Part shown: in pieces, positions 2,942-31,735 of the stretch
Layout of the letters: the number at the start of each line of letters is the position of its first letter
Position numbering within the stretch: the stretch's first letter is position 1
Assembly (NCBI GenBank): GCA_947165675.1
Contig: CAMVBJ010000032.1
Coordinates: 1-32,327, forward strand
Reading direction: 5' to 3'
Origin: an uncultured Prevotellaceae bacterium
GTDB taxonomy: Bacteria; Bacteroidota; Bacteroidia; Bacteroidales; Muribaculaceae
DNA length: 32,327 bases
Notes under the pieces: generated by a model
What the model was told of the DNA's origin: nothing
The model's input: the letters and a program-made list of their open reading frames with translations, nothing else
The model's database searches: none
Position numbers and translations under genes: made by a program

Positions 2942-4228
2942 TTATGCTGCCTTTTTCATTCTCTGCCGTATGGCTTCTGCGTTGCTGTTTACAAGGCTGA
3001 CAATGCGGTCGTGATACTCGGTGTTCCTGTTGCAGACACCTCGGCTTTGTACTACTCGGAATTCGTCAAGGCTAAATTCCACTGTCTCCACTCGCTCCCC
3101 ATTGATGGTAGCAGAGAAGATTAGGCTTTCCTCGTTGAGATAGTAGGATGCGCTGAATACGCAATGGTGCATGTGGTTTCCCTCCTGGCGGTGTTCCTCC
3201 ACACTCTCCAACACACGGACATTGATAAGCCCGTCCGTGAACAAAAGACCGAAGAACTTGCCTTTCATTGCCTTGAACTTGGCTTCGCTCTTGGCTGCTC
3301 TTTCCATGTCTTCGGCTCTGCGCTCACGTTCTGCCTGCTCGTCTATCTTCTTCACCAACTTGTCGTGTGTTGCTTGGAGGTCGGTGGGGCAAATGTAGTG
3401 TGCATTACGGATGTCCTTGCCAACCTTGCTGAGCATTCGGATGGTGTCACACCATAGGCTGATGCTGCCAATATGGTAGTGGTTGCGCTTGGCAATCTTG
3501 TAGGAGTTCCAACAGATTTCAAGGTCGGTGGAGTGCATCATGAAGTGGCGGAAGTGGTCGATGCGTCCCGATTTGAGAAGGGTCTCATAGCGGTTGTCAC
3601 GGAGTATCGCCTTGAACATCGCCAATGGAGCCAGTCCGTAGAGGTCACCCGTAAAGCCGTTGCGCTCCAGTTCGGGGATAACGTCCATCTTCGGGTAGAG
3701 GGGGAAGGTGGCGAGGTGGCTGTAGGTGTCGTTGTCATAGCGGAGTGCCATGCCCTCATTGTAGGAAAAACAGTCAAGGTATGGTCCCATCGTACGCTTC
3801 AGTCCTATCACCTCACATTGCCCCTTGCCGTTGATGTAGTAGCGGCATATCTCTCTACAAGTAGCCTTGGAGAGTTCACCCTTGCGGTGCTCGGTCTTGA
3901 CCAGTGCCACACGGAGGACTTGCAGTCCTTTCCTTGTGGTGAGTGTGGTGAAGTAGGCTGACTGGCTGAGGGTGCGGTTTCTCGTCTCTTTCACCTCTAA
4001 CTTGCGTCCACAATGGGGGCAGGTAAGGTGTTTGTTTTTCTTTTCAGCGTCTGTGATAGTCCACTGGTGTCCGCACTCCATGCAGGTATGGCGGAGTGAG
4101 TCGGGGTAGCGGTAGGCATAGTGGTCGGTGAGTTCATCGGCTGCCCACTTGATAACTCTCTTGGCGATGGGTGCCGTGCCCTTGTCGGACTGGCACACCA
4201 TCTTCTGAAATTGCGTTCTCGGTTTCAT
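2942..4228 (-). CDS. PcfJ-like conjugative-element protein
   Basis: This 428-residue protein has an N-terminal zinc ribbon (Cys49-x2-Cys52 and Cys70-x2-Cys73). A long central helical region with a charged stretch around 300-320 follows. The C-terminal PcfJ-type segment contains EGNHMHHCVFSASYY and an ATINGERVETVEFSL motif. PcfJ was named from the conjugative plasmid pCF10; homologues are common in Bacteroidales conjugative elements and phages. The biochemical role is unknown, though the zinc ribbon and basic stretches suggest nucleic-acid binding. It lies 9 bases after the PcfK-like gene, and this pair is usually found together. Confidence 0.85.
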   Translation of the reverse strand: MKPRTQFQKMVCQSDKGTAPIAKRVIKWAADELTDHYAYRYPDSLRHTCMECGHQWTITDAEKKNKHLTCPHCGRKLEVKETRNRTLSQSAYFTTLTTRKGLQVLRVALVKTEHRKGELSKATCREICRYYINGKGQCEVIGLKRTMGPYLDCFSYNEGMALRYDNDTYSHLATFPLYPKMDVIPELERNGFTGDLYGLAPLAMFKAILRDNRYETLLKSGRIDHFRHFMMHSTDLEICWNSYKIAKRNHYHIGSISLWCDTIRMLSKVGKDIRNAHYICPTDLQATHDKLVKKIDEQAERERRAEDMERAAKSEAKFKAMKGKFFGLLFTDGLINVRVLESVEEHRQEGNHMHHCVFSASYYLNEESLIFSATINGERVETVEFSLDEFRVVQSRGVCNRNTEYHDRIVSLVNSNAEAIRQRMKKAA

Positions 4229-4237
4229 AATGCTCTG

Positions 4238-4660
4238 TTAGAAGTTGTCGAATAATGAGGGTTGCTGAATGGCGTAGGTCTGTGCCGTCCTTGCCTTTGG
4301 CTTGCTGCGTTGGGAAATGCGGTTGTAGGTCTCGTTCTCCAGTCTGCGGATGGCATTTCGACGTGCCTCCTGCTTCTCTTCCTCGGTGAGTTCAACTACA
4401 TGGTTCACCTTCACGTCACACTCCACCGGCTTGCCCACTTCCAAGTCCTTTTCCTCGGCTGCGTGGATAGCCAGTGAGTAGATTTCATCGTCATCGAAGC
4501 CGTGGCACTCGCTCTTCATCACTTCGTTGAGGATATAGGTCACGATGTCATCGATGCTGCGGTTCACTGCATGGTACTTCTCAGCGAAGAGCGTGTCCTC
4601 GCTTGCCCTCTGCTCCAGATAGGAGTGGATGGTCTGTTTGAAACTTTCAGTTCCTTTCAT
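4238..4660 (-). CDS. PcfK-like conjugative-element protein
   Basis: This 140-residue protein is mostly helical and acidic in its first half (FKQTIHSYLEQRASEDTLFAEKY, then NRSIDDIVTYILNEV). A basic patch follows (EEKQEARRNAIRRLENETYNRISQRSKPKAR), and the C-terminus ends PSLFDNF. This is the PcfK-like family, whose genes almost always precede pcfJ-like genes, as here with 9 bases between. The terminal SLFDNF resembles a sliding-clamp-type short peptide (QxSLFDxF). Clamp binding is an inference from that motif only. Confidence 0.82.
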   Translation of the reverse strand: MKGTESFKQTIHSYLEQRASEDTLFAEKYHAVNRSIDDIVTYILNEVMKSECHGFDDDEIYSLAIHAAEEKDLEVGKPVECDVKVNHVVELTEEEKQEARRNAIRRLENETYNRISQRSKPKARTAQTYAIQQPSLFDNF

Positions 4661-4696: not shown

Positions 4697-4894
4697 TCAG
4701 AGTGACACAATCCAAAGGAAAGTGCCTATAAGCAGGAGGATGGTGAGGATAATCGCCACCCAAGAGAGGATGATGGAGAGGACAGTCTCAATGACTGCTG
4801 CCATCAGGTTGCATACAAGGTTCATCAGCCAGTCCAAGATGCGGAGGGGCATCAGAGCCATCATCATTGCCGTAGAAATTGCCATTTGTCTCAT
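4697..4894 (-). CDS. Small membrane protein of the conjugative element
   Basis: The open frame extends to 5047, but the upstream part is low-quality sequence lying in the structured repeat. The ATG at 4894 gives 65 residues, MRQMAISTAMMMALMPLRILDW onward, with a second hydrophobic stretch IILSWVAIILTILLLIGTFLWI near the end. It probably has two membrane-associated segments. Small hydrophobic proteins in this position beside pcfK-like genes recur in Bacteroidales elements. Function is unknown; it heads the pcfK-pcfJ run. Confidence 0.55.
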   Translation of the reverse strand: MRQMAISTAMMMALMPLRILDWLMNLVCNLMAAVIETVLSIILSWVAIILTILLLIGTFLWIVSL

Positions 4895-4993
4895 ATTGCG
4901 CTTCGGTTTGGTTTGTATATGATTGCGGTTTCCACGAGTCGGAGGAAGTGAGTTTCCTGCCTTTGACCTATATGTATGTACCGCTGAACTTGC

Positions 4994-5260
4994 CATTTTT
5001 TTTGCGTCTGTCCTGTCGCCGTTGTCGTTTCGTTTCGGCGGCTCCACTAAGGCTACGAGGTCGGCTATACAAGTTTTTCGTGGAAAATACTACCTCGTAA
5101 GAGTGTGGAGATTTTCCAGCGAAACGCCTGCGCCCGAACTTGAAGAGCCGAGATCCGTGGCCATAACTTTGCCGCCCAAACGGAACGACCGGAGACGGAC
5201 AGGAAAAAGTGGCGATTCGCGGTCGTGACAACATATATGGGGCTGAAACTCGGCTCTCCG
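4994..5260 (+). repeat. Structured non-coding block 1, copy 1
   Basis: The first part aligns with 7346-7517: a T-run then GCGT, CAAGTTTTTCG, and AATACTACC...GTGTGGAGATTTTCC. A stem TCGGCT/AGCCGA corresponds in place to TTGGA/TCCAA of copy 2, with two compensatory changes. Further perfect inverted pairs lie beyond: AGAGCCGAG (from about 5144) with CTCGGCTCT (to about 5260), and ACGACCG with CGGTCGT. No convincing reading frame runs through it. It lies between the small membrane gene and structured block 2. Confidence 0.6.
5139..5171 (+). promoter_or_regulatory. Candidate promoter reading into structured block 2
   Basis: CTTG (5139-5142) is followed after 21 bases by TAACTTTG (5164-5171). The equivalent point of copy 2 keeps a -7 match, TACCTTTG at 7510-7517, despite surrounding divergence. 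It would drive plus-strand transcription against the neighbouring genes. The -33 box is one base off consensus. Confidence 0.45.
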
Positions 5261-5370
5261 ACTTGGTGGGAAGCCGATAGTCTCGTCACTGTTATGTGAT
5301 AGGATAGAATATGAACCGTGTAAAATGGACTCGCGTGTCAATGGGGACTATCTGGCAGTGAACAGAGAAA

Positions 5371-5822
5371 GCGGGAACGGCAAGCCCAAGAAACAAGTGT
5401 ACATCGGAAGGGACGGACAAATGCTTGTCATCTGCCCGGCACTTCCGATGTACTCTTGTGGGGATTGCCCATCAGCAGACAACTCTCTGTATCTTTCCCG
5501 TCGTACCTGCTACGATGCGAGAAATACAGAATGTTGGATGCCTGGATGCTTTTCCTTTAGTTCCTCCTAAACCTCATAGCCGACAGCCATCATTGAGGGG
5601 TGTTCTTTTAGGAGTGGCAACTGGAGAAGTGAGCCAAGCGGGAGAGTCTGCCCGAAGGCTTTCAGGCAGGTATTCGCTGGGCTTTCTTCTCGCCGCTCCG
5701 CTGCCATGCCATTCTCTGAGGCTCGTCCCCAGAGTATGAGATGGCAGAAAAGGACAGCACCAACGACGAAGCCATCGGCTATGAGGTAACTGGAGGAACT
5801 TGAACAACTCTACAAAAGCAAT
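5371..5822 (+). ncRNA. Triplicated structured non-coding element, copy A
   Basis: This is about 450 bases without a conserved reading frame and is repeated at about 7.70 and 8.27 kb. Hairpin 1 has an 18-bp stem with one mismatch (5393-5410 with 5442-5459). An inner GACAA/TTGTC loop lies between its arms. Hairpin 2 is a double stem, CTGCCAT/ATGGCAG (5701-5707, 5741-5747) enclosing ATTCTCTG/CAGAGTAT (5711-5718, 5730-5737). Middle stems TCCTAAA/TTTAGGA, CCTCA/TGAGG and CTGCC/GGCAG are also present. Strand is inferred from the upstream -7 box. It could be an RNA, or a single-stranded DNA structure used in transfer or replication. Confidence 0.6.
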
Positions 5823-5927
5823 AACAATGAAAAAAAGGAACGGGCTGTATAATTGAAAACATTGAATATGAGAACAAACATATCTCCTTAAACAAGCCTT
5901 CTGCAAGAACGGAACAAGGTTTCTTTG

Positions 5928-5995
5928 CTTCTTTCTTTCTCGCCATGCGTGCTCATGAAAGAAAGAAGTCGGGCGGCATCTTTCATCCGTCCGAC
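5928..5995 (-). repeat. Double-hairpin cassette, copy 2, 3' of radC
   Basis: CTTCTTTCTTTC (5928-5939) pairs perfectly with GAAAGAAAGAAG (5957-5968). An immediately adjoining 9-bp stem GTCGGGCGG/CCGTCCGAC (5968-5976, 5987-5995) has one G-T pair. Both stems match the cassette at 1777-1843. The run GAGCA-(n)-GGCGAGAAAGAAA on the minus strand is also shared. It begins about 20 bases after the radC stop. Confidence 0.7.
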
Positions 5996-6014
5996 TTCTC
6001 TGCTCATTCATTGC

Positions 6015-6710
6015 TTACAACTTGCCATTTTCTGCGTATGAGTAATAATTTCCGTCCGTCACGATAACATGGTCGAGGAAGTGGATGCGCATGACCTCAC
6101 AGGCTTTCTTCACGCTCTGCGTCAGTGTATCGTCAATTCTGCTGGGACGTATGCTGCCGCTGGGGTGGTTATGGCAGACTGCCATGATGGTCGCATTGTT
6201 AAGAACTGCCTCACGTATCATAATCCGTATATCTGCGCTCACCTCGGTTATACCTCCTTGGCTGATTCGCTCAGACTTGATAAGGCGGAAGTTCTGATTT
6301 ATCAGCAGGATGTGAAACTCTTCCGTTGCGAGGTCTTGCATCTTGGGCAGCATGTAGTTGTAGATACGGGTGGCAGTGCTCATTTCGGGATGCAGTTCGG
6401 GTGTCGCTATCTGCCTGCGCTTGCCCAACTCAACTGCTGCGAGTATCTTGCAGGCTGTCTGTGTGCCAACTCCCTCGATGTTGAGGATTTCATCGAAACG
6501 AGCCTTGCCCAAAGTGTTGAGGTTGTGGTTGAACCTGCCCAATACTTGTTTGCCAATATCCACTGCGCTGTACTGCTGCGTACCGCTGCCAATGAGGATG
6601 GCAAGTAACTCTGCGTCAGTTAGTGACTCTGCGCCTAAACGCTGTAATTTCTCTGTGGGTCGGTCTTCGGGTGCCCACTGCTTAATGCTCATTCTTAATG
6701 CTGTGTTCAT
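6015..6710 (-). CDS. radC: RadC-family JAB/MPN-domain protein
   Basis: This 231-residue protein has a helix-hairpin-helix region (ILNIEGVGTQTACKILAAVELG, about 76-97). A C-terminal JAB/MPN domain follows with the metalloprotease-like signature HNHPSGSIRPSRID: His180, His182 and Asp193. RadC-family proteins are not established repair enzymes despite the name, and copies on mobile elements are very common. The ATG at 6710 follows the upstream phosphoribosyltransferase stop by 2 bases, indicating coupling; Met7 (6692) is an alternative start. A double-hairpin cassette follows the stop codon. Confidence 0.88.
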   Translation of the reverse strand: MNTALRMSIKQWAPEDRPTEKLQRLGAESLTDAELLAILIGSGTQQYSAVDIGKQVLGRFNHNLNTLGKARFDEILNIEGVGTQTACKILAAVELGKRRQIATPELHPEMSTATRIYNYMLPKMQDLATEEFHILLINQNFRLIKSERISQGGITEVSADIRIMIREAVLNNATIMAVCHNHPSGSIRPSRIDDTLTQSVKKACEVMRIHFLDHVIVTDGNYYSYAENGKL

Positions 6711-6712
6711 AA

Positions 6713-7246
6713 TCAGTTGTATTTATAATTGTTTGTTCTACGATAGTTCTTTGTCTTGGCGAGGAACATAGCCATTCTGACGTGTGCCCCTGCCGATTCC
6801 ATCCGCTCCTTGAATGCGTCCGATGTCCTGCCCGATGTGCAGATGTCGTCAATGAGCAGGATGCGCTTGCCCTTGAAGAAATCCTCGTCTATCCACACGT
6901 TGTCCTCGGCTGCGTATTCTCCGCAAATGTGTACCTTCTCTCGCTTTCCGATGACATGTATATGCTCGAACCCGTCTATAGCACCACACATGGCGGACAA
7001 CTTGGCAGAGAAATTGCGGAACCTGCGGGTATAGGTCTGTTGACAACTTGCAGGGATGCAGACTATCACAGTGTCCTTCAAGTCCATCAATGAGAGAGCC
7101 TTGCCGATGAGCCGTGAAGCCTTGTCGGTAGCATAGCGTCTGCCTGACTTGAAGTCGAGGATGAAGCGGTCGTTCTCCAGTGTATCGAATGATGCACGAC
7201 GGAGGTAACGCTGTGGCACATAGTCGAGAAGGGCGTACTTAAACAT
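6713..7246 (-). CDS. Phosphoribosyltransferase-domain protein
   Basis: The PRPP-binding loop is clear in KRILLIDDICTSGRTSDAF: two acidic residues then TSGRT. An earlier strand, DTVIVCIPASCQQTYTRRF, fits the ComF-like/PRT fold. The ATG at 7246 gives 177 residues; a longer reading would need a TTG at 7270. The substrate is unknown. ComF-like proteins help DNA uptake, and PRT proteins on conjugative elements often sit beside radC, as here with a 2-base gap. A conserved inverted repeat GATTCAG/CTGAATC (7286-7292, 7314-7320) lies just upstream. Confidence 0.75.
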   Translation of the reverse strand: MFKYALLDYVPQRYLRRASFDTLENDRFILDFKSGRRYATDKASRLIGKALSLMDLKDTVIVCIPASCQQTYTRRFRNFSAKLSAMCGAIDGFEHIHVIGKREKVHICGEYAAEDNVWIDEDFFKGKRILLIDDICTSGRTSDAFKERMESAGAHVRMAMFLAKTKNYRRTNNYKYN

Positions 7247-7345
7247 ATTCAATCTGCTTTTGATGTTCAACTTTTGTTTTTTGCGGATTCAGGAGCTGTG
7301 AAGTGAGTTCCTACTGAATCAAATCCGTACTCCGTGAATCCTTCG

Positions 7346-7517
7346 TTTTTTTTTGCGTATTTCTATCGCCGTTTGTTTCGTTCCTGTGGCTTCATCAAAG
7401 GTTGCAGATTGGATACGGCAAGTTTTTTCGGCAAAATACTACCCCTTGCGGTGTGGAGATTTTCCCGAAAACCCATGTGGCTTGAACTTTCCATTCCAAT
7501 CTGCAGGTTTACCTTTG
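7346..7517 (+). repeat. Structured non-coding block 1, copy 2
   Basis: This aligns with about 4996-5171. A perfect 11-bp stem TGCAGATTGGA (7403-7413) with TCCAATCTGCA (7495-7505) encloses the conserved core CAAGTTTTTTCGGCAAAATACTACC (interrupted by small differences in copy 1). The stem sequence differs from copy 1 but pairing is retained. It ends at the plus-strand -7 match TACCTTTG (7510-7517). It lies directly upstream of the phosphoribosyltransferase gene, pointing away from it. Confidence 0.6.
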
Positions 7518-7698
7518 CCACGGGAACGTATCTAACGGGCGTACTGAAATACCTGCGAAGGTTCACGGGTCGGATTGCAACCAAGTGGCTTGCCCTTCCT
7601 CCAGGCAATGCCTGAGAAAACGAGAGTTTTGGATGTCGAAGAGTAAATACAAGAACGGCATACTGAAAAGGAACACCCCTAACGATGAACAAAGAAAA

Positions 7699-8150
7699 GC
7701 AGGGACAGCAAGCCCATGAAGCAAGTGTGCATCGGAAGGGACGGACAAATGCTTGTCATCTGCCCGGCACTTCCGACGTACTCTTGTGGGGATTGCCCAT
7801 CAGCAGACAACTCTCTATGTCTCTCCCTTTGACCGTGGGCGAAGAGAAAGACATGGAATGTTGGAAGCCTGAATGCTTTTCCTTCAGTTCCTCCTAAACC
7901 TCATAGCCGACAGCCGTCATTGAGTGCTCTCCTTTTAGGAGTGGCAACTGGAGAAGTGAGCCAAGCGGGAGAGTCTGCCCGAATACTTTCAGGCAGGTAT
8001 TCGCTTCGCTATCTTCTCGCCAATCCGCTGCCATGTCATTCTCTGAGGCTCGTCCCCAGAGTATGAGATGGCAGAAAAGGACAGCACCAACGACGAAGCC
8101 GTCGGCCATGAGGTAACTGGAGGAACTTGAAATACCTCTACAAAAGCAAA
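7699..8150 (+). ncRNA. Triplicated structured non-coding element, copy B
   Basis: This is close to copy A over its whole length. Hairpin 1 (7721-7738 with 7770-7787) keeps pairing with G-T wobbles and one A-C mismatch. Hairpin 2 (8028-8034 and 8068-8074, inner stem 8038-8045 and 8057-8064) is identical in its stems. The open frames across copies A and B are in different registers in the 5' half, so no common peptide is preserved. The end GAGGT...ACCTC can form a closing stem. Confidence 0.6.
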
Positions 8151-8270
8151 ATACGTGAAATGGAAAACATCTACGGATAGACAAGGACAGGAAAGAAAAT
8201 GGAAACAAAGCGTGTTTAGTGCCAAATGGACTTCTGTGTCAAATGGACAGCATAAACAAAAGGATATTAG

Positions 8271-8640
8271 AAAGCATGGACAGCAAGCCCAAAAGACAAG
8301 TGTGCATTGGAAAGGTAGGCAAGCCTGCTCGTCTGCCTTTCCAACGCATTCTTGGCAGGGATTGCCCCCTCCAGCATCCAACTCTCTGTATCTCGCCCTT
8401 CACACCAGTGGGATGAGCAAAATACAGAATGTCGGATGCCTGAATGCTTTCCACCTCCGCCTTTTCCTCACGACAGACTGCCGTCATTGAGGCCGTCCGA
8501 AAGGAGTGACATTAGGAGAAGTTAGCAGGCTATCTTCTCGTCGCTCCATTGCCATAGCATTCTCTTCGGCTTGCCCAAGAGTATGTTACGGCAATAAAAG
8601 GACAGCCCAATAACGAAGCAGTCTGCCGTGGGGATAATGG
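8271..8640 (+). ncRNA. Triplicated structured non-coding element, copy C (diverged)
   Basis: This is a shorter, diverged copy lacking the CTGCC/GGCAG arm. Hairpin 1 (about 8297-8315 with 8336-8354) is built from TTGGAAAGG and CCTTTCCAA where copies A and B have TCGGAAG and CTTCCGA. Hairpin 2 is TTGCCAT/ACGGCAA (8549-8555, 8588-8594) enclosing ATTCTCTT/AAGAGTAT (8559-8566, 8577-8584). These base changes occur on both arms together. No block 1 or -7 box is seen directly upstream. Confidence 0.55.
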
Positions 8641-8671
8641 ACGGACAATGAACCTATCGTAAGAAAAAGGA

Positions 8672-8940
8672 AATCGTTACCAAATGGAAACAGGTAACTA
8701 AAAGACATAAAATAGCCAAGGAAAAGGTAACAAAAACCTATAAAAATATTAAGTTTCTGCCCATTTCTTTGGTGGTAACAGAATAAATGATTATCTTTGC
8801 ACTCACTAAGAAGCGTTCTTTGGAAATGTGTATAACGAGACAGAATATGTAATTCAGCTCGTTTCTAAATCGTTACCTAATTACCATTCGAAGCGAGGTA
8901 ACAAAATGATTTCTAAAGAGTTATAATTTTCCCCGTAACA
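8672..8940. other. Probable terminal region of the conjugative element with GGTAAC repeats
   Basis: GGTAAC occurs at 8693, 8726, 8774 and 8897, its complement GTTACC at 8676 and 8872, and CGTAAC at 8934. That is seven near-identical hexamers in about 260 bp of otherwise non-coding, A/T-rich DNA. This density at the point where conjugative-element DNA gives way to a truncated chromosomal-type gene resembles arm-type recombinase sites at an attachment end. That role is inferred; neither the core site nor the other end is visible here. Confidence 0.45.
8768..8799 (+). promoter_or_regulatory. Outward-reading Bacteroidetes-type promoter
   Basis: TTTG (8768-8771) is followed after 20 bases by TATCTTTG (8792-8799), an exact consensus match. 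Transcription would run out of the presumed element end into the truncated LRR gene. No long reading frame starts just downstream: the first ATG gives eight codons. Confidence 0.6.
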
Positions 8941-10011
8941 AGATATGGAGAATATGCTTTTGGCAATTGTTACTATCTATCGAGCATTGTTATTCCAAAT
9001 TCGGTTACATCAATTGGTAATTTAGCATTTGATAAATGTAATAGTCTAAGAACTGTATATTTAACTGGTAAAAATGAATGGATAGCTGGAGAATTACCAA
9101 ACACAACATCAAATCTTTATCTTGAGGGAGGTATTACATCTGTAAAAGGAATGTATCTCAATCCCTCAAATATATATTGCTATGCAACAGTACCTCCTGA
9201 ATGTGATGGTTATTCATTTACTGATTATTCAGGTACTCTACATGTACCGGCAAGTTCACTTGCATTGTATTTTACAGCCCCTTACTGGTGCAATTTTGCA
9301 AATATTGTAGGTGATGCTATTGGTGCCAATTCGATCAATTTGAATAAGACCTCACTTGAATTAATAACTGGAGATCAAGAAGTATTAGTAGCCTCGGTAC
9401 AACCTTCAAATGCTAATCCTAAAATAATTACTTGGAATTCAAGTAATGAAGATGTTGCGACTGTGATAAATGGAGAAGTCACTGCAATAGGACAAGGTGA
9501 ATGTGATATCAAGGTAACTTGTTTTAATAATGTTGAAGCATATTGTCATGTAATAGTAAAAGACAATGTAGCAGACGAAATCACAATTTATCTTGACACA
9601 AATGAAGTCCAGATGTTGCCTAATCACATTATTACACTAACACCTAGTGCATCACCCATTTTGCCTGACCTAACAGTATCTTCAAGCGATCCTACAGTAG
9701 CAGCGGCTCGTGTAGTGAGCAATAAAGTTCAGGTCGTAGGTATTAAAGAAGGAACTGCAACAATTACTGTCGGCTCTGTTGATGGTACTGCTATTCCTGC
9801 TACTTGTCTTGTAACTGTCTATACCGAACCTGGCGACATTAACTGTGATGGTTTCGTTAATATCAGCGATGTGACTTCTCTAATTGATTACCTGCTTAGT
9901 GGTGATGAATCTCAGATAAGTACCAAGAATGCCGATGTTAATGATGATGAGAGCATTAATATCTCAGATGTAACAGAACTTATCGATATCCTTCTAAGTG
10001 GGAATGGTTAA
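8929..10011 (+). pseudogene. 5'-truncated BspA-like LRR / Big2 / dockerin surface protein
   Basis: The frame is open from 8917. Recognisable protein begins near 8935 with VTRYGEYAFGNC and IPNSVTSIGNLAFDKC, two LRR_5 (BspA-type) repeats. The conserved part thus extends well upstream of the first ATG at 9151. After the repeats come a Big2-like Ig domain (SINLNKTSLEL ... WNSSNEDVATV), a second Ig-like region, and two dockerin-like repeats (GDINCDGFVNISDVTSLIDYLL and DVNDDESINISDVTELIDILL). There is no signal peptide or start codon in frame, so the 5' end is lost. The likely cause is insertion of the element to the left. A good terminator follows. Confidence 0.75.
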
Positions 10012-10071: not shown

Positions 10072-10125
10072 GTAGTTCCGCTCAATTATTCTCATCTTGT
10101 GACTGTAACACCATAGTCCGTTCTT

Positions 10126-10380
10126 ATGTCCAGCCCTCCCACCAAACATGAGCTAATATCCCTGGTCGAATCTATGTGTGAAGTCCAGGATAGAATGCTC
10201 GGCGCTAGAGGAATGCCTGAACATATCCAAAGACCTCACGTGGATAATATGGAGGCATTAAAAGCGCCGGTATTTTTCCTGTGGGAGTTGCTTGGATATG
10301 GAACGCCAAGAGAATTGTCCGAAAAGGGCATTAGGAGGGTCTGGATTGACTCAAAAATATCGCCATTGAAAATCAGATAA
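10126..10380 (+). CDS. Possible small hypothetical protein
   Basis: This is an 84-codon open frame with balanced composition, including RMLGARGMPEHIQRPHVDN and APVFFLWELLGYG. It has no family that I recognise. Its end overlaps the 3' end of the convergent integrase gene by 8 bases. No promoter or clear ribosome site is visible. Because about 300 bases here would otherwise be empty, it may be real, but it could equally be a remnant or chance frame. Confidence 0.3.
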   Translation: MSSPPTKHELISLVESMCEVQDRMLGARGMPEHIQRPHVDNMEALKAPVFFLWELLGYGTPRELSEKGIRRVWIDSKISPLKIR

Positions 10381-14795: not shown

Positions 14796-15206
14796 ATGAG
14801 CGAATTAAAGGTTCTTAACAGCGGCGACAAGTTCGCCCACACCTCTGTTGGCAAGCTTCACGGCTTCGAGGGTAAGCAGTTTGTAAAAGACGTGGTCGGT
14901 GCCACTTCATGTGAGATTTCTTTCGGCACGCTGCCTACGGGCGCAGCCGTTCCGTTCTATCACAGCCACAAGGAGAATGAGGAGAACTACATCATCCTCA
15001 GCGGTGCAGGCCGTTTCCAGGTGGGTGATGAGGCTTTCGATATCGCCGAGGGGTCGGTGATCCGTGTGGCCACCCATTGCGACCGCAACATCAAGTGCAC
15101 TTCGGCCGAGCCCATGACCTACATCTGCATCCAGGCCAAGGAGGGTTCCTTGAGCCAGTACACTCAGAACGATGCCGAAATCACGGAGCACGAGAACAAG
15201 ATGTGA
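14796..15206 (+). CDS. Cupin-domain protein
   Basis: This 136-residue single-domain cupin has PFYHSHKENEENYIILSGAGRFQVGDE, with metal-binding His, His and Glu in the first cupin motif. A second motif, IRVATHCDRNIKC, follows. The open frame extends upstream to 14667 but would run through the promoter, so the ATG at 14796 is the start. The substrate is unknown. Cupin genes divergent from HxlR regulators are common and usually relate to quinone, aldehyde or redox stress. A strong terminator follows. Confidence 0.85.
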   Translation: MSELKVLNSGDKFAHTSVGKLHGFEGKQFVKDVVGATSCEISFGTLPTGAAVPFYHSHKENEENYIILSGAGRFQVGDEAFDIAEGSVIRVATHCDRNIKCTSAEPMTYICIQAKEGSLSQYTQNDAEITEHENKM

Positions 15207-15231
15207 TCGTTTAATGAAACGTCAAGACAAG

Positions 15232-15259
15232 AAACGCCCTCAACGGGCGTTTTTTGTTT
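15232..15259 (+). terminator. Rho-independent terminator after the cupin gene
   Basis: AAACGCCC (15232-15239), loop TCAAC, GGGCGTTT (15245-15252), then TTTGTTT. Confidence 0.9.
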
Positions 15260-15337
15260 GATGTTATGCGCCAGCACAGTTAAGTAGCCGAGTAAGAGTT
15301 TTAAAACACACTCTATCATGATTACTCAACCACGATG

Positions 15338-29758: not shown

Positions 29759-31735
29759 TCAATTGCCGCTGAGCAGCATGTCGATCAGGGCCGTCACGTC
29801 GGCGATGCTCACGTTGCCGTCACCGTTCACGTCACAGGCAGGATTAGTGACGCTGCCACCACCGAGCAGCAGGTCGATGAGGGCCGTCACGTCGGCGATG
29901 CTCACATTGTTGTCGCCGTTCACGTCACCCGTCTCGACGGCCTTCTCGGTAACTTTCACGTTATCGACGGCAAAGTAGTCGCCCGTGGGGTGCTGGCTAC
30001 CGTCCTTGCTGTAGGTCCACGTCAACACGTGCGAGCCCACAGGCAGGTCGGCGGTGAAGGTCTCCCAGTCGTTGTCGCGGGCGCCGTAGGTGAACTGCAC
30101 CACGCCATCGATCAGGAACTCACACTTGTCATAGCTGGTGCCCTCGCCCCAGGCCTTGAAGTCAAACGTCACGGTCGAGAGCTTGCTCACGGTCACCTGG
30201 GCAATGATGGTCGAGGTGGAGCTGTGCACGCCCGCGTTGCCCGACATGGCATAGATGCGTGTGCCGTCACCCATAACGACCCACGGGTAGCTGGCCGTGG
30301 TGCTGGAGAAGCTCAGGCTTGAGCCGGCAGCGTTCAACGCATAGTTGAGCTCGGAGCCGTCGTTGGGCAGTATGGTGTAGAAATTCTTCCAGTAGGTGGC
30401 AGCCTTGTAGCTGTTCACGGCCGACATCGAGGGTACATAGACCTTGGTAGTGCTGTAGTGGTTGGAGTCAAACGTGTTGCTCTGGATCGTGGCAGGCGTG
30501 CTGCGCTGGCACGTCACCTTCTGCAGCGCCGTGCAGCCGTAGAAGGCGAGGGTGCCGATGCTGGTCACGCCCGAGCCAAGGGTCACCTGGGTCAGGCCAG
30601 TGCAGTTCCTGAATACCTCCTTCCCGATGGACGTCACGCTGCTGCCCATGGTCACCGACTTCAAGGCTCCCTGTGCGCGCGGTACCGAAGCCCCTGCCGG
30701 ACTGTTCAGGTTTATGGCTACGACCTCATTGAAGGCATAGTCACCGATGGCCGTCACGTTGTAGGTCTTGCCCAGGTCGCTGTAGTAGGCGGTGTTGGGG
30801 ATGGTGATGTTGCCGCTGTAGTTGGTGTCACTTGAGCTGGTAAGGCCGACACTGCTGTTGCGTTTGTTGATTACCTTGACGGTGTTGCTGCCCGTGATCA
30901 GGTAATAGATGCCGCCCGTGTAGAAGTCGTAAGCCTGTGTGTAGTTGATATTGTAGAAGTTCTTCCAGTAGTTTGCGGCCTGGTACAGTGACTTGGCGTA
31001 AGGATTGGTCACCTTGATGCGGTACATATTATAAGGGTTCTGGTAGTAATCGCTATTCGTGACGAAAGAGTTGCTGGCGAGCGTGGGGGGAGTGAGGGAT
31101 TTGCAGATGATGTTCACATTGTTAAGATAGGTCTGCCCATTCACTTCATAGGAGCCTTTGAAATAGAAAGCATAAGCCCCGATCGAAGTTACCGACTTGC
31201 CAAGGGTAATCTCGTTCATGCTTACGCAGTCGTAGAAAGCACCCTCACCGATGGTGGTCACGCCATCACCGATAACAACGGTTTGCAAACTCCAGCAATA
31301 AGAGAAAGCATCTTCACCGATAGATTTTACTGAATTAGGAATGGTGATTGTGGTAATATGCGGGTATTCGAGGTAATTGTCCATTTCACTACCTCTGAAA
31401 GCGTAATCACCGATGGACGTAATCGTATTGGGGAGTGTGATTGACGTCATGCCTGCCGCACCGTGGAATGCTAATTCACCGATGGCGGTGACGGTATAGG
31501 TCGTGCCATTATAATAAACACTGCTGGGAATGGTCACGTTGCCACTATAGACTCCATCACCATCATTCCAGTCACCATTGTTGGTCACCTCTACGGTTTT
31601 GTTGGTTGTACTCGTGATGTTGTAGTAGATCGTCACGCCATTGTAGGCTGATGAGAAGCTGTAAGCGCTGGCGCTTAGGGCACTGGTCAGGCACGCCACG
31701 AGGGCGAGCAGTTTGAAGAAAGTTAAATGTTTCAT
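29759..31735 (-). CDS. BspA-like leucine-rich-repeat surface protein with dockerin-like C-terminus
   Basis: This 658-residue protein has a signal peptide (about 1-24). Many LRR_5 repeats follow (about 75-470) in the form 'VTSIGDYAF..C..L..ITLPNSV', for example SVKSIGEDAFSYCWSLQTVVIG. A jelly-roll-like region (about 455-590, VTFDFKAWGEGTSYDKCEFLIDG) comes next, then two dockerin-like repeats (DVNGDNNVSIADVTALIDLLL and DVNGDGNVSIADVTALIDMLL). BspA-type proteins of oral and gut Bacteroidales bind host proteins or other bacteria. The same end module is found in the truncated gene at 8.9-10 kb, so the two are paralogues. It is preceded by a long leader. Confidence 0.88.
   Translation of the reverse strand: MKHLTFFKLLALVACLTSALSASAYSFSSAYNGVTIYYNITSTTNKTVEVTNNGDWNDGDGVYSGNVTIPSSVYYNGTTYTVTAIGELAFHGAAGMTSITLPNTITSIGDYAFRGSEMDNYLEYPHITTITIPNSVKSIGEDAFSYCWSLQTVVIGDGVTTIGEGAFYDCVSMNEITLGKSVTSIGAYAFYFKGSYEVNGQTYLNNVNIICKSLTPPTLASNSFVTNSDYYQNPYNMYRIKVTNPYAKSLYQAANYWKNFYNINYTQAYDFYTGGIYYLITGSNTVKVINKRNSSVGLTSSSDTNYSGNITIPNTAYYSDLGKTYNVTAIGDYAFNEVVAINLNSPAGASVPRAQGALKSVTMGSSVTSIGKEVFRNCTGLTQVTLGSGVTSIGTLAFYGCTALQKVTCQRSTPATIQSNTFDSNHYSTTKVYVPSMSAVNSYKAATYWKNFYTILPNDGSELNYALNAAGSSLSFSSTTASYPWVVMGDGTRIYAMSGNAGVHSSTSTIIAQVTVSKLSTVTFDFKAWGEGTSYDKCEFLIDGVVQFTYGARDNDWETFTADLPVGSHVLTWTYSKDGSQHPTGDYFAVDNVKVTEKAVETGDVNGDNNVSIADVTALIDLLLGGGSVTNPACDVNGDGNVSIADVTALIDMLLSGN

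What the first reader, a model, noticed from the sequence alone, without database searches (positions are those of the whole stretch)
5371..8640. Non-coding element present three times, with compensatory changes in its hairpins
Copies at about 5371-5822, 7699-8150 and 8271-8640 share no common reading frame, but the same two hairpins form in each. In hairpin 1, TCGGAAG/CTTCCGA of copies A and B is TTGGAAA/TTTCCAA in copy C, with both arms changed. In hairpin 2, the outer first pair C-G becomes T-A and the inner closing pair G-C becomes T-A. At least four paired substitutions across copies point to selection on structure, either as an RNA or as single-stranded DNA. Position between conjugative-element genes, read against them, suggests a role in transfer, replication or regulation of the element. 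I do not recognise it as a named RNA class.
Basis: partly seen in the sequence, partly recalled or inferred. Interest (0 to 1): 0.85.

Follow-up and report, generated by a model that had tools for sequence, protein, structure and literature searches.

The report
Hairpin DNA promoters beside mobile-element genes
The three repeated hairpin-rich stretches are real and appear to be kept folded by natural selection, and next to two of them sits a second, unnoticed hairpin that carries a Bacteroidota-type promoter where folding of single-stranded DNA could switch on a mobile element's first genes as it enters a new cell.

Summary
Confirmed: copies A (5368-5822), B (7696-8150) and C (8271-8640) of element "D" share a two-domain fold with many compensatory changes, seen again in 9 related Bacteroidales loci and, pooled, beyond a phylogenetic null. 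D's pairs do not favour G-U the way an RNase P control does, so a folded DNA strand fits better than an RNA.

D is half of a module. Beside A and B lies another long hairpin, "U" (about 4985-5225 and 7345-7550). Its core also occurs in 26 viral contig loci and 13 of 247 Bacteroidales genomes. Outside the searched core, U carries the Bacteroidota -7 box TAnnTTTG near a fixed place in its 3' arm; its arms co-vary; and beside it lie genes such as ArdA, ArdC, PRTase-RadC or PcfK-PcfJ, placed so that a folded strand would read them. As duplex DNA the box points away from them.

Best reading: U is a hairpin promoter resembling the single-stranded-DNA promoter Frpo of F plasmid, with Bacteroidota boxes; D is a companion single-strand structure of unproven job. 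Against: several U carriers have tailed-phage genes and no known single-stranded entry, no transcript data exist, and D has no promoter box of its own on that strand.

The parts
5368..5822 (.). D element, copy A (two structural domains; drawn on the - strand, it also folds on the + strand)
   Evidence: repeat and fold:
7696..8150 (.). D element, copy B
8271..8640 (.). D element, copy C, diverged and lacking the extra hairpin of about 45 nt that A and B have
4985..5225 (+). U element, copy A: long hairpin; proposed single-stranded-DNA promoter firing leftward towards PcfK-PcfJ
7345..7550 (+). U element, copy B: proposed single-stranded-DNA promoter firing leftward towards PRTase-RadC
5086..5114 (+). 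conserved core of U copy A (AATACTAC...GTGTGGAGATTT)
7435..7462 (+). conserved core of U copy B
5164..5171 (+). Bacteroidota -7 box TAACTTTG in the 3' arm of U copy A, in an internal loop of the stem; CTTG as -33-like element 21 nt before it
7510..7517 (+). Bacteroidota -7 box TACCTTTG in the 3' arm of U copy B; its TA is unpaired in the predicted DNA fold
6713..7270 (-). phosphoribosyltransferase-like gene next to U copy B
6015..6710 (-). RadC-family gene, second in that gene pair
4238..4660 (-). PcfK-like gene, the first gene with a Pfam match left of U copy A
2942..4228 (-). PcfJ-like gene, following PcfK

Best explanation
The repeats are the D half of a two-part module, U-D, placed before the gene sets PRTase-RadC and PcfK-PcfJ of a CTnDOT-like integrative conjugative element. 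When the transferred strand (inferred to be the + strand of the window) enters a recipient as single-stranded DNA, U folds into a long hairpin. Its 3' arm supplies the non-template strand of a Bacteroidota promoter (-33-like CTTG, -7 TAnnTTTG) and its 5' arm the template, with pairing loosened at the TA of the -7 box. Host RNA polymerase starts there and runs out of the base of the stem along the single strand, leftward, making PRTase-RadC or PcfK-PcfJ mRNA before the second strand exists; in duplex form the same box points the other way, so the switch turns itself off. D is a folded single-strand element on the far side of U; it most likely keeps that stretch free of SSB and/or serves priming of the second strand. 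Shown by computation: the folds, the co-variation, the box and its place, the neighbouring gene families. Inferred: transferred strand, promoter activity, the job of D.
For: U core: 27 viral-contig loci, one of them (L107) a chance hit, and 17 sites in 13 of 247 Bacteroidales genomes, with 0 hits of the reversed control pattern in the rows listed. The -7 box was not part of the search pattern, yet TAnnTTTG lies within 75 nt of the core in the 3' arm in 19 of 22 non-redundant U; background 0.438 per kb per strand; distances are mostly 43-52 nt, with 57, 67 and 69 as exceptions. Later set of 15 sites, not thinned: 11 within 85 nt. Arms co-vary without any alignment: own-arm duplex -45.1 against -28.6 for swapped arms, own partner best in 16 of 22, 0 of 20,000 permutations; later set -36.9 against -25.8, 10 of 14, 0 of 20,000. 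No TAnnTTTG on the strand facing the left gene in any of 22. Genes on that side: ArdA, ArdC N-domain, SSB, MutS_I and PRTase-like, ArdA twice and PcfK, RadC. The ICE of L014 has relaxase and coupling protein on -, tra genes on +, then the - strand module. D shows no wobble preference and folds well with DNA parameters (z -9.8 for B).
Against: None of 25 viral-contig records has a PF03432 relaxase; L106, L114 and L117 match terminase large subunit, L093 and L126 head maturation protease, so phages carry U, and for them a single-stranded entry stage is not known. The module lies about 18-21 kb from the presumed oriT, past the tra genes, not right at the leading end. Openness of the whole -7 box against the rest of the arm is not significant (p 0.27); only the TA step stands out against the spacer (18 of 21), post hoc. 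L095 and L111 show no folding signal (z 0.0) and L111, the only SSB neighbour with a Pfam match, ranks 21 of 22 in the own-arm test. In the later set 4 of 15 lack a strict box and 3 of 15 have one on the other strand within 300 nt. D has no TAnnTTTG on its + strand and folds better on the - strand with RNA parameters in 15 of 17 copies; with DNA parameters U_B is also better on -. No U core beside a distant PRTase in 3 named Bacteroides plasmids.
Confidence: 0.5

Rival explanations
1. D is a structured non-coding RNA. Either U is (at least in part) the ordinary duplex promoter that drives it rightward (U's -7 box lies about 190-230 nt before D and points at it), or D is made leftward from promoters of its own.
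For: Similar distance from the box to D in the ICE loci; a strongly folded, ORF-poor stretch at the same place (+200 to +700) beside U in phage PRTase loci. For a leftward RNA: D folds better on the - strand in 15 of 17 copies, and a - strand TAnnTTTG lies between 120 nt before and 30 nt inside the D 5' end in 4 of 15 copies, at three different places.
Against: Event counts show no G-U preference on either strand (34 against 47; against the RNase P control p=1e-5 if the RNA is the - strand, p=0.013 if the + strand; a small cobalamin control, 11 to 6 in 11 sequences, cannot separate them). U's 5' arm, which a rightward transcript would not contain, co-varies with the 3' arm. 11 of 15 copies have no - strand box there. 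The folding energies favour the strand opposite to a rightward transcript.
Confidence: 0.25
2. U and/or D are single-strand origins (sso/ssi): RNA polymerase or a primase lays a primer on the folded single strand to start second-strand synthesis, and expression of the neighbouring genes is a side matter.
For: An sso with three stem-loops is known in an ICE (ICEBs1 sso1; PMC4595007, passages seen); Frpo is described as a promoter for both transcription and primer RNA (title of Masai and Arai, seen in a reference list). D would be on the same single strand as U.
Against: A priming site alone would not need to sit beside the start of ArdA, PRTase-RadC or PcfK genes in different elements.
Confidence: 0.2
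3. The palindromes are kept complementary by a mutational process (quasi-palindrome correction or gene conversion between arms), not by function, so compensatory changes do not show selection.
For: The lack of a G-U bias is also what arm-copying would give.
Against: A promoter box near a fixed spot outside the searched core; the same gene order of the module in three loci and loss of one whole inner domain in some copies.
Confidence: 0.05

Closest known systems
Frpo1/Frpo2 (ssi) single-stranded-DNA promoters of F plasmid
   Same: Non-coding hairpin of the transferred strand with promoter boxes inside the stem, before establishment genes such as ssb, in more than one copy, with those genes read from the transferred strand (PMC9849209 and PMC11541004, passages seen).
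   Different: Boxes are the Bacteroidota -33/-7 type, not -35/-10; the conserved core (AATACTACC...GTGGAGATTT) is not among the Frpo features given in those passages; also found in contigs with phage genes; in the ICE it lies past the tra genes; a second structured element D follows it.
sso of rolling-circle plasmids and ICEBs1 sso1
   Same: Stem-loops acting on single-stranded DNA in one orientation, activity depending on structure, present in an ICE (PMC4595007, passages seen).
   Different: No sequence comparison with an sso was made; U sits beside gene starts and carries a promoter box.
Complementary-strand origin of filamentous phage M13 (recalled, from no call)
   Same: RNA polymerase recognises a hairpin of a single-stranded genome.
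   Different: Makes a short primer, not mRNA; small ssDNA phage.

Membership tests
[quoted passage not shown]
   window U_A and U_B as DNA: z -8.3 and -8.0, 0 of 200 shuffles each; arms co-vary over 22 U and 14 later ones; L095 and L111 do not fold
Frpo-type single-stranded-DNA promoter | promoter boxes formed inside the stem | tested here: met
   TAnnTTTG in the 3' arm in 19 of 22 (within 75 nt) and 11 of 15 U (within 85 nt); consensus from PMC7366714 (passages)
Frpo-type single-stranded-DNA promoter | E. coli-type -35 TTGACA and -10 TATAAT | not tested
   no -35/-10 scan was run; the boxes found are of the Bacteroidota type
Frpo-type single-stranded-DNA promoter | upstream of early establishment genes read from the transferred strand | tested here: inconclusive
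   gene families fit; transferred strand only inferred, from the relaxase being on the - strand in one ICE and the coupling protein in a second element, L119
Frpo-type single-stranded-DNA promoter | sequence similarity to known Frpo | not tested
   no Frpo sequence was fetched
Frpo-type single-stranded-DNA promoter | needed for early expression in recipients | not testable with these tools
   needs mating experiments
structured non-coding RNA (for D) | G-U pairs accepted in place of Watson-Crick pairs on one strand | tested here: not met
   34 to G-T against 47 to A-C; RNase P control 51 to 14; cobalamin control too small to tell
structured non-coding RNA (for D) | match to a described family | tested here: not met
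   Rfam 15 scan of the whole window at E<=1: a single match, to mir-3179 elsewhere at 30493-30573 and far below gathering
structured non-coding RNA (for D) | a transcript | not testable with these tools
   no RNA-seq at hand
single-strand origin (sso/ssi) | supports second-strand synthesis in one orientation | not testable with these tools
   needs a plasmid assay

The most novel reading that the evidence does not exclude
Bacteroidota mobile elements, ICEs and phages alike, carry their own class of hairpin promoters, built on the phylum's -33/-7 boxes plus a conserved core, that work when the DNA is single-stranded or extruded and switch on anti-defence and establishment genes in a new host; some come with a second, exchangeable structured block (D in this ICE, an unrelated D' in five related phage loci).
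Probability: 0.45. Interest if true: 0.9.

Novelty: new variant of a known kind. Interest (0 to 1): 0.75.

Why it matters
Single-stranded-DNA promoters are shown to act in F plasmid and predicted in other elements. If U is one, the same strategy exists in a phylum with a different promoter code, found here by a short core motif plus a test for paired arms, so it can be listed across Bacteroidota. It would point to which little-known genes beside U (DUF6943, RadC, PRTase, PcfK/PcfJ) are early anti-defence or establishment genes. Its presence in phage contigs would ask when phage DNA is single-stranded or extruded in these hosts. For D it gives a concrete DNA-against-RNA test.

Tried and rejected
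Coding: no common frame in D by eye. Rfam: nothing for D or U. Plasmid and phage nucleotide collections: no D. D by DNA search: own genome only of 297 family genomes; own plus one of 393 order genomes, the extra one a 39-nt match inside a coding ORF, taken as chance (one search failed for a missing file). First viral-contig scans for D and a strict U core: 0; strict U core in class genomes: own and one more, of 395. Per-pair covariation: none significant at E<=0.05 for D or, of 19,306 pairs, for a MAFFT alignment of 22 U; I then used pooled and alignment-free tests. A 1x1-mismatch strand test was dropped because it did not recognise RNase P (24 to 22). The first event test gave RNase P 30 to 10 and D 34 to 46; the strand-symmetric version replaced it. 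In the RNase P set 5 of 29 loci were dropped for short flanks; of 28 cobalamin loci entered, only 11 with an exact B12-box string were kept. L019_2 was dropped from the event counts as identical to window copy C over its length. For the 22 U, 33 sites were thinned at 90% identity; L107 was left out as chance. The later 15 sites were not thinned, and L130, L131 and L139 are close relatives. An ORF-neighbour table by simple ORF calls was too noisy to use. Relaxase search of 25 viral records: none. U core beside PRTase genes of 3 named Bacteroides plasmids: none. Named phages: one weak PRTase match, not followed. The phage PRTase-like proteins are only distant relatives of the window's (at best 24% identity, E 3e-6; L106 no real match) and match Pfam below its cut-off. 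Papers: no hit for structured RNA with Bacteroides conjugative transposons or for single-stranded promoters with Bacteroid-; 4 papers hold both Frpo and Bacteroid-, and by title none is on this subject.
Full report
The finding names three repeats. They are real: A 5368-5822, B 7696-8150, C 8271-8640. I call the element D. Written on the - strand, D has two domains: a 5' domain with a long stem, a side hairpin and a branched arm, and a 3' domain whose outer helix encloses two hairpins. A and B carry an extra hairpin of about 45 nt that C lacks. B and C fold far better than dinucleotide shuffles on either strand (z -10.4 to -13.5). On the three copies alone there are 156 consensus pairs; 21 pairs show double canonical changes (22 comparisons), 17 comparisons change on one side only.

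D elsewhere. It is rare: own genome only of 297 family genomes, nothing real in the other 392 of 393 order genomes, none in plasmid or phage collections. One scan of the genome collection (one genome for each of 84,980 species, by the tool's description) with a pattern of its invariant helix ends gave 9 loci, all Prevotella or other Bacteroidales assembled from metagenomes; five titles name a ruminant stomach compartment. In three loci long enough to show it (L014, L016, L018; the last begins at U) the order is kept: PcfJ-PcfK, U, D, RadC-PRTase, U, D, D. Some copies are partial; in two of them (L014 third copy, L017 first copy) the inner part of the 3' domain is missing and the outer helix is closed by a short loop (by eye). 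L018 has one copy interrupted by a stretch with a 445-aa ORF without Pfam match.

Is it selection on structure? I aligned 17 copies and partial copies and tested the fold of W_B against 500 null alignments in which substitutions are re-scattered along the tree. Canonical cells 89.1% against 74.7% (sd 1.4); pairs with double Watson-Crick change 42 against 23.5 (sd 4.2); 0 of 500 nulls reach either. On the narrower set of Watson-Crick pairs common to both strands' folds, 2 of 500 reach the doubly-changed pair count, and 0 the share of canonical cells or the doubly-changed cell count. With W_C as reference 0 of 500 reach any of the three. No single pair passes E<=0.05 in an R-scape-like test over 78,210 pairs, so the claim rests on the pooled test.

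RNA or DNA? In an RNA, a Watson-Crick pair may drift to G-U but not to A-C; in folded DNA both are mismatches. Counting such events on the tree with helices chosen symmetrically for the two strands, RNase P from relatives gives 51 to G-U and 14 to A-C on its RNA strand (p 4e-6), so the test works there; D gives 34 and 47 (- strand letters, p 0.18). D differs from RNase P whether its RNA were the - strand (Fisher p 1e-5) or the + strand (p 0.013). The phage analogue described below gives 9 and 16. A small cobalamin set (11 to 6, n=11) is not decisive. Against this, RNA folding energy favours D's - strand in 15 of 17 copies; with DNA parameters the strands are closer, - still a little ahead for B and C. 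A - strand TAnnTTTG lies near the D 5' end in 4 of 15 copies, at three different places, which would suit a leftward RNA in those copies. I read the whole as favouring DNA, not proving it. Strand-biased mutation could also shape the counts.

The neighbour. A shared stretch left of A and B (D8) and a folding scan showed another structured element, U: a hairpin of 200-250 nt with a fixed core, AATACTAC...GYGTGGAGATTT, and stems that differ between copies. Its + strand 3' arm carries TAnnTTTG in each of the ICE copies scanned, the -7 consensus of the Bacteroidota primary sigma factor (PMC7366714, passages).

U elsewhere. Searching only with the core, IMG/VR gave 27 loci, one of them chance. After thinning to 22 non-redundant U including the window's two and L013, TAnnTTTG lies within 75 nt after the core in 19, against a background of 0.438 per kb per strand; of the other three, L111 has it at 69 nt, just past that window, and L095 and L112 have near-matches. 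Distances are mostly 43-52 nt, with 57, 67 and 69 as exceptions. Own 5' and 3' arms pair at -45.1 kcal/mol on average against -28.6 for swapped arms; own is best in 16 of 22; not one of 20,000 permutations reaches it. The promoter spacer pairs best with its own arm in 13 of 21, and the stretch after the box with its own 5' flank in 15 of 21. L095 and L111 do not fold (z 0.0), and L111 ranks 21 of 22. As a later test I searched 247 Bacteroidales genomes: 13 have the core (17 sites, two of them the window's own); the reversed pattern has none in the rows listed. In the 15 new sites the strict box is present in 11; own arms -36.9 against -25.8, best in 10 of 14, 0 of 20,000 permutations. These 15 were not thinned and include three close relatives.

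Is the box open? With DNA parameters the box as a whole is not significantly more open than the rest of the arm (p 0.27). Its TA step is more open than the spacer in 18 of 21, a comparison I chose after seeing the table.

Which gene does it serve? As duplex, the box points right. On the other side, on the - strand, are genes with these domains: SSB (L111), ArdA (L102), ArdC N-terminal domain (L108), MutS_I (L093, second gene), PRTase-like below Pfam's cut-off (L101, L117) (6 of 10 scanned proteins matched a family); PRTase-like below the cut-off (L106, L110) (2 of 10 matched); ArdA (L125, L126), PcfK (L133, second gene), DUF6943 (L127, L130), DUF6266 (L136) (8 of 10 above cut-off, among them a Clp protease and an AAA protein further away); RadC (L013; L106, second gene, 45% identical to the window's over 98 residues); and PRTase-RadC and PcfK-PcfJ in the window. 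The phage PRTase-like proteins are at best 24% identical to the window's. Several left ORFs match nothing. No TAnnTTTG faces the left gene between core and gene in any of 22 (start positions were judged from ORFs, and 400 nt were scanned where none was judged); in the later set 3 of 15 have one within 300 nt. Because the arms are complementary, a folded + strand gives a promoter running left, towards these genes, using the + strand as template.

Transfer. In the genome behind L014 the ICE is on one contig: coupling protein 4844-6856 (-), relaxase 6907-8223 (-), MobC_2-family protein 8208-8663 (-), a gap, tra genes from 9499 to about 22093 (+), a Fic-domain gene (-), then PcfJ, PcfK, U, D, RadC, PRTase, U, D and a partial D, U and D lying about 18-21 kb from the gap. 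Since the relaxase gene typically enters last (PMC11541004, passage), the + strand should be the transferred one, and the - strand genes of this module are then the ones that can be read from it. This is inference; the nick is not mapped. L119, which has T4SS coupling and TraG-type proteins on - and U on +, agrees.

Comparison. Frpo1 and Frpo2 of F are non-coding stem-loops that rebuild -10 and -35 boxes on single-stranded DNA, sit before ssb and other leading genes, are needed in vivo for early expression, and are proposed to be inactivated by conversion to duplex (PMC9849209, passages). A survey of leading regions looked for sigma-70 type boxes, and its main text holds no 'Bacteroid' (PMC11541004, find). 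My searches for such promoters in Bacteroidota found none, in an open-access library only. ICEBs1 sso1 shows that ICEs can carry folded single-strand origins (PMC4595007, passages).

What does not fit. None of 25 viral records has a PF03432 relaxase. L106, L114 and L117 match terminase large subunit, L093 and L126 head maturation protease, and L102 has a Clp-type protease; two presumed portal proteins and one presumed capsid protein matched nothing. Phage DNA enters as duplex as far as I know, so there U would need another trigger, perhaps extrusion as a cruciform. In five related phage loci the stretch right of U is again ORF-poor and strongly folded, with 28 of 164 pairs doubly changed in 5 sequences; blastn of D against the loci finds only one 16-nt match, elsewhere in L093. 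Three other loci scanned the same way (L103, L112, L119) show little or less of it. So U seems at times to travel with a second structured block whose sequence is free to be replaced. What D does remains open; priming of the second strand or keeping SSB away are my best guesses.

Noticed in passing
L101, L106, L110, L114, L117: about +170 to +760 right of the U core: A second strongly folded, ORF-poor region without significant similarity to D, with whole hairpins exchanged between relatives and 28 doubly changed pairs of 164.
   Followed up: partly
L014 6245-6700, L017 660-1100, L021 about 4850-5200: Partial D copies; in the first two the inner hairpins of the 3' domain are gone and the outer helix is closed by a short loop.
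   Followed up: partly
L127 1501 and 1899: Two U cores in tandem, 398 nt apart, same orientation, before a DUF6943 gene.
   Followed up: no
window 8640-9150: Conserved leader right of D copy C with a good promoter (TTTG, 20 nt, TATCTTTG at 8792) before a rightward ORF with Big_2 and dockerin domains; a similar leader lies before a BspA-type leucine-rich-repeat dockerin gene in L018.
   Followed up: partly
window 15101-15300 and 10101-10300: Further stretches with folding z about -5 to -6 on at least one strand, not examined.
   Followed up: no
window 30493-30573: Rfam mir-3179 match at 26.3 bits, far under the gathering score of 90; taken as chance.
   Followed up: no
L018 1396-2733: A 445-aa ORF without Pfam match lies in the stretch that interrupts a D copy; perhaps an insertion element.
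   Followed up: no
G1065:C22 12952-13110: Second, distant PcfJ-like stretch in the L014 genome (72% DNA identity over 159 bases), perhaps another conjugative element.
   Followed up: no
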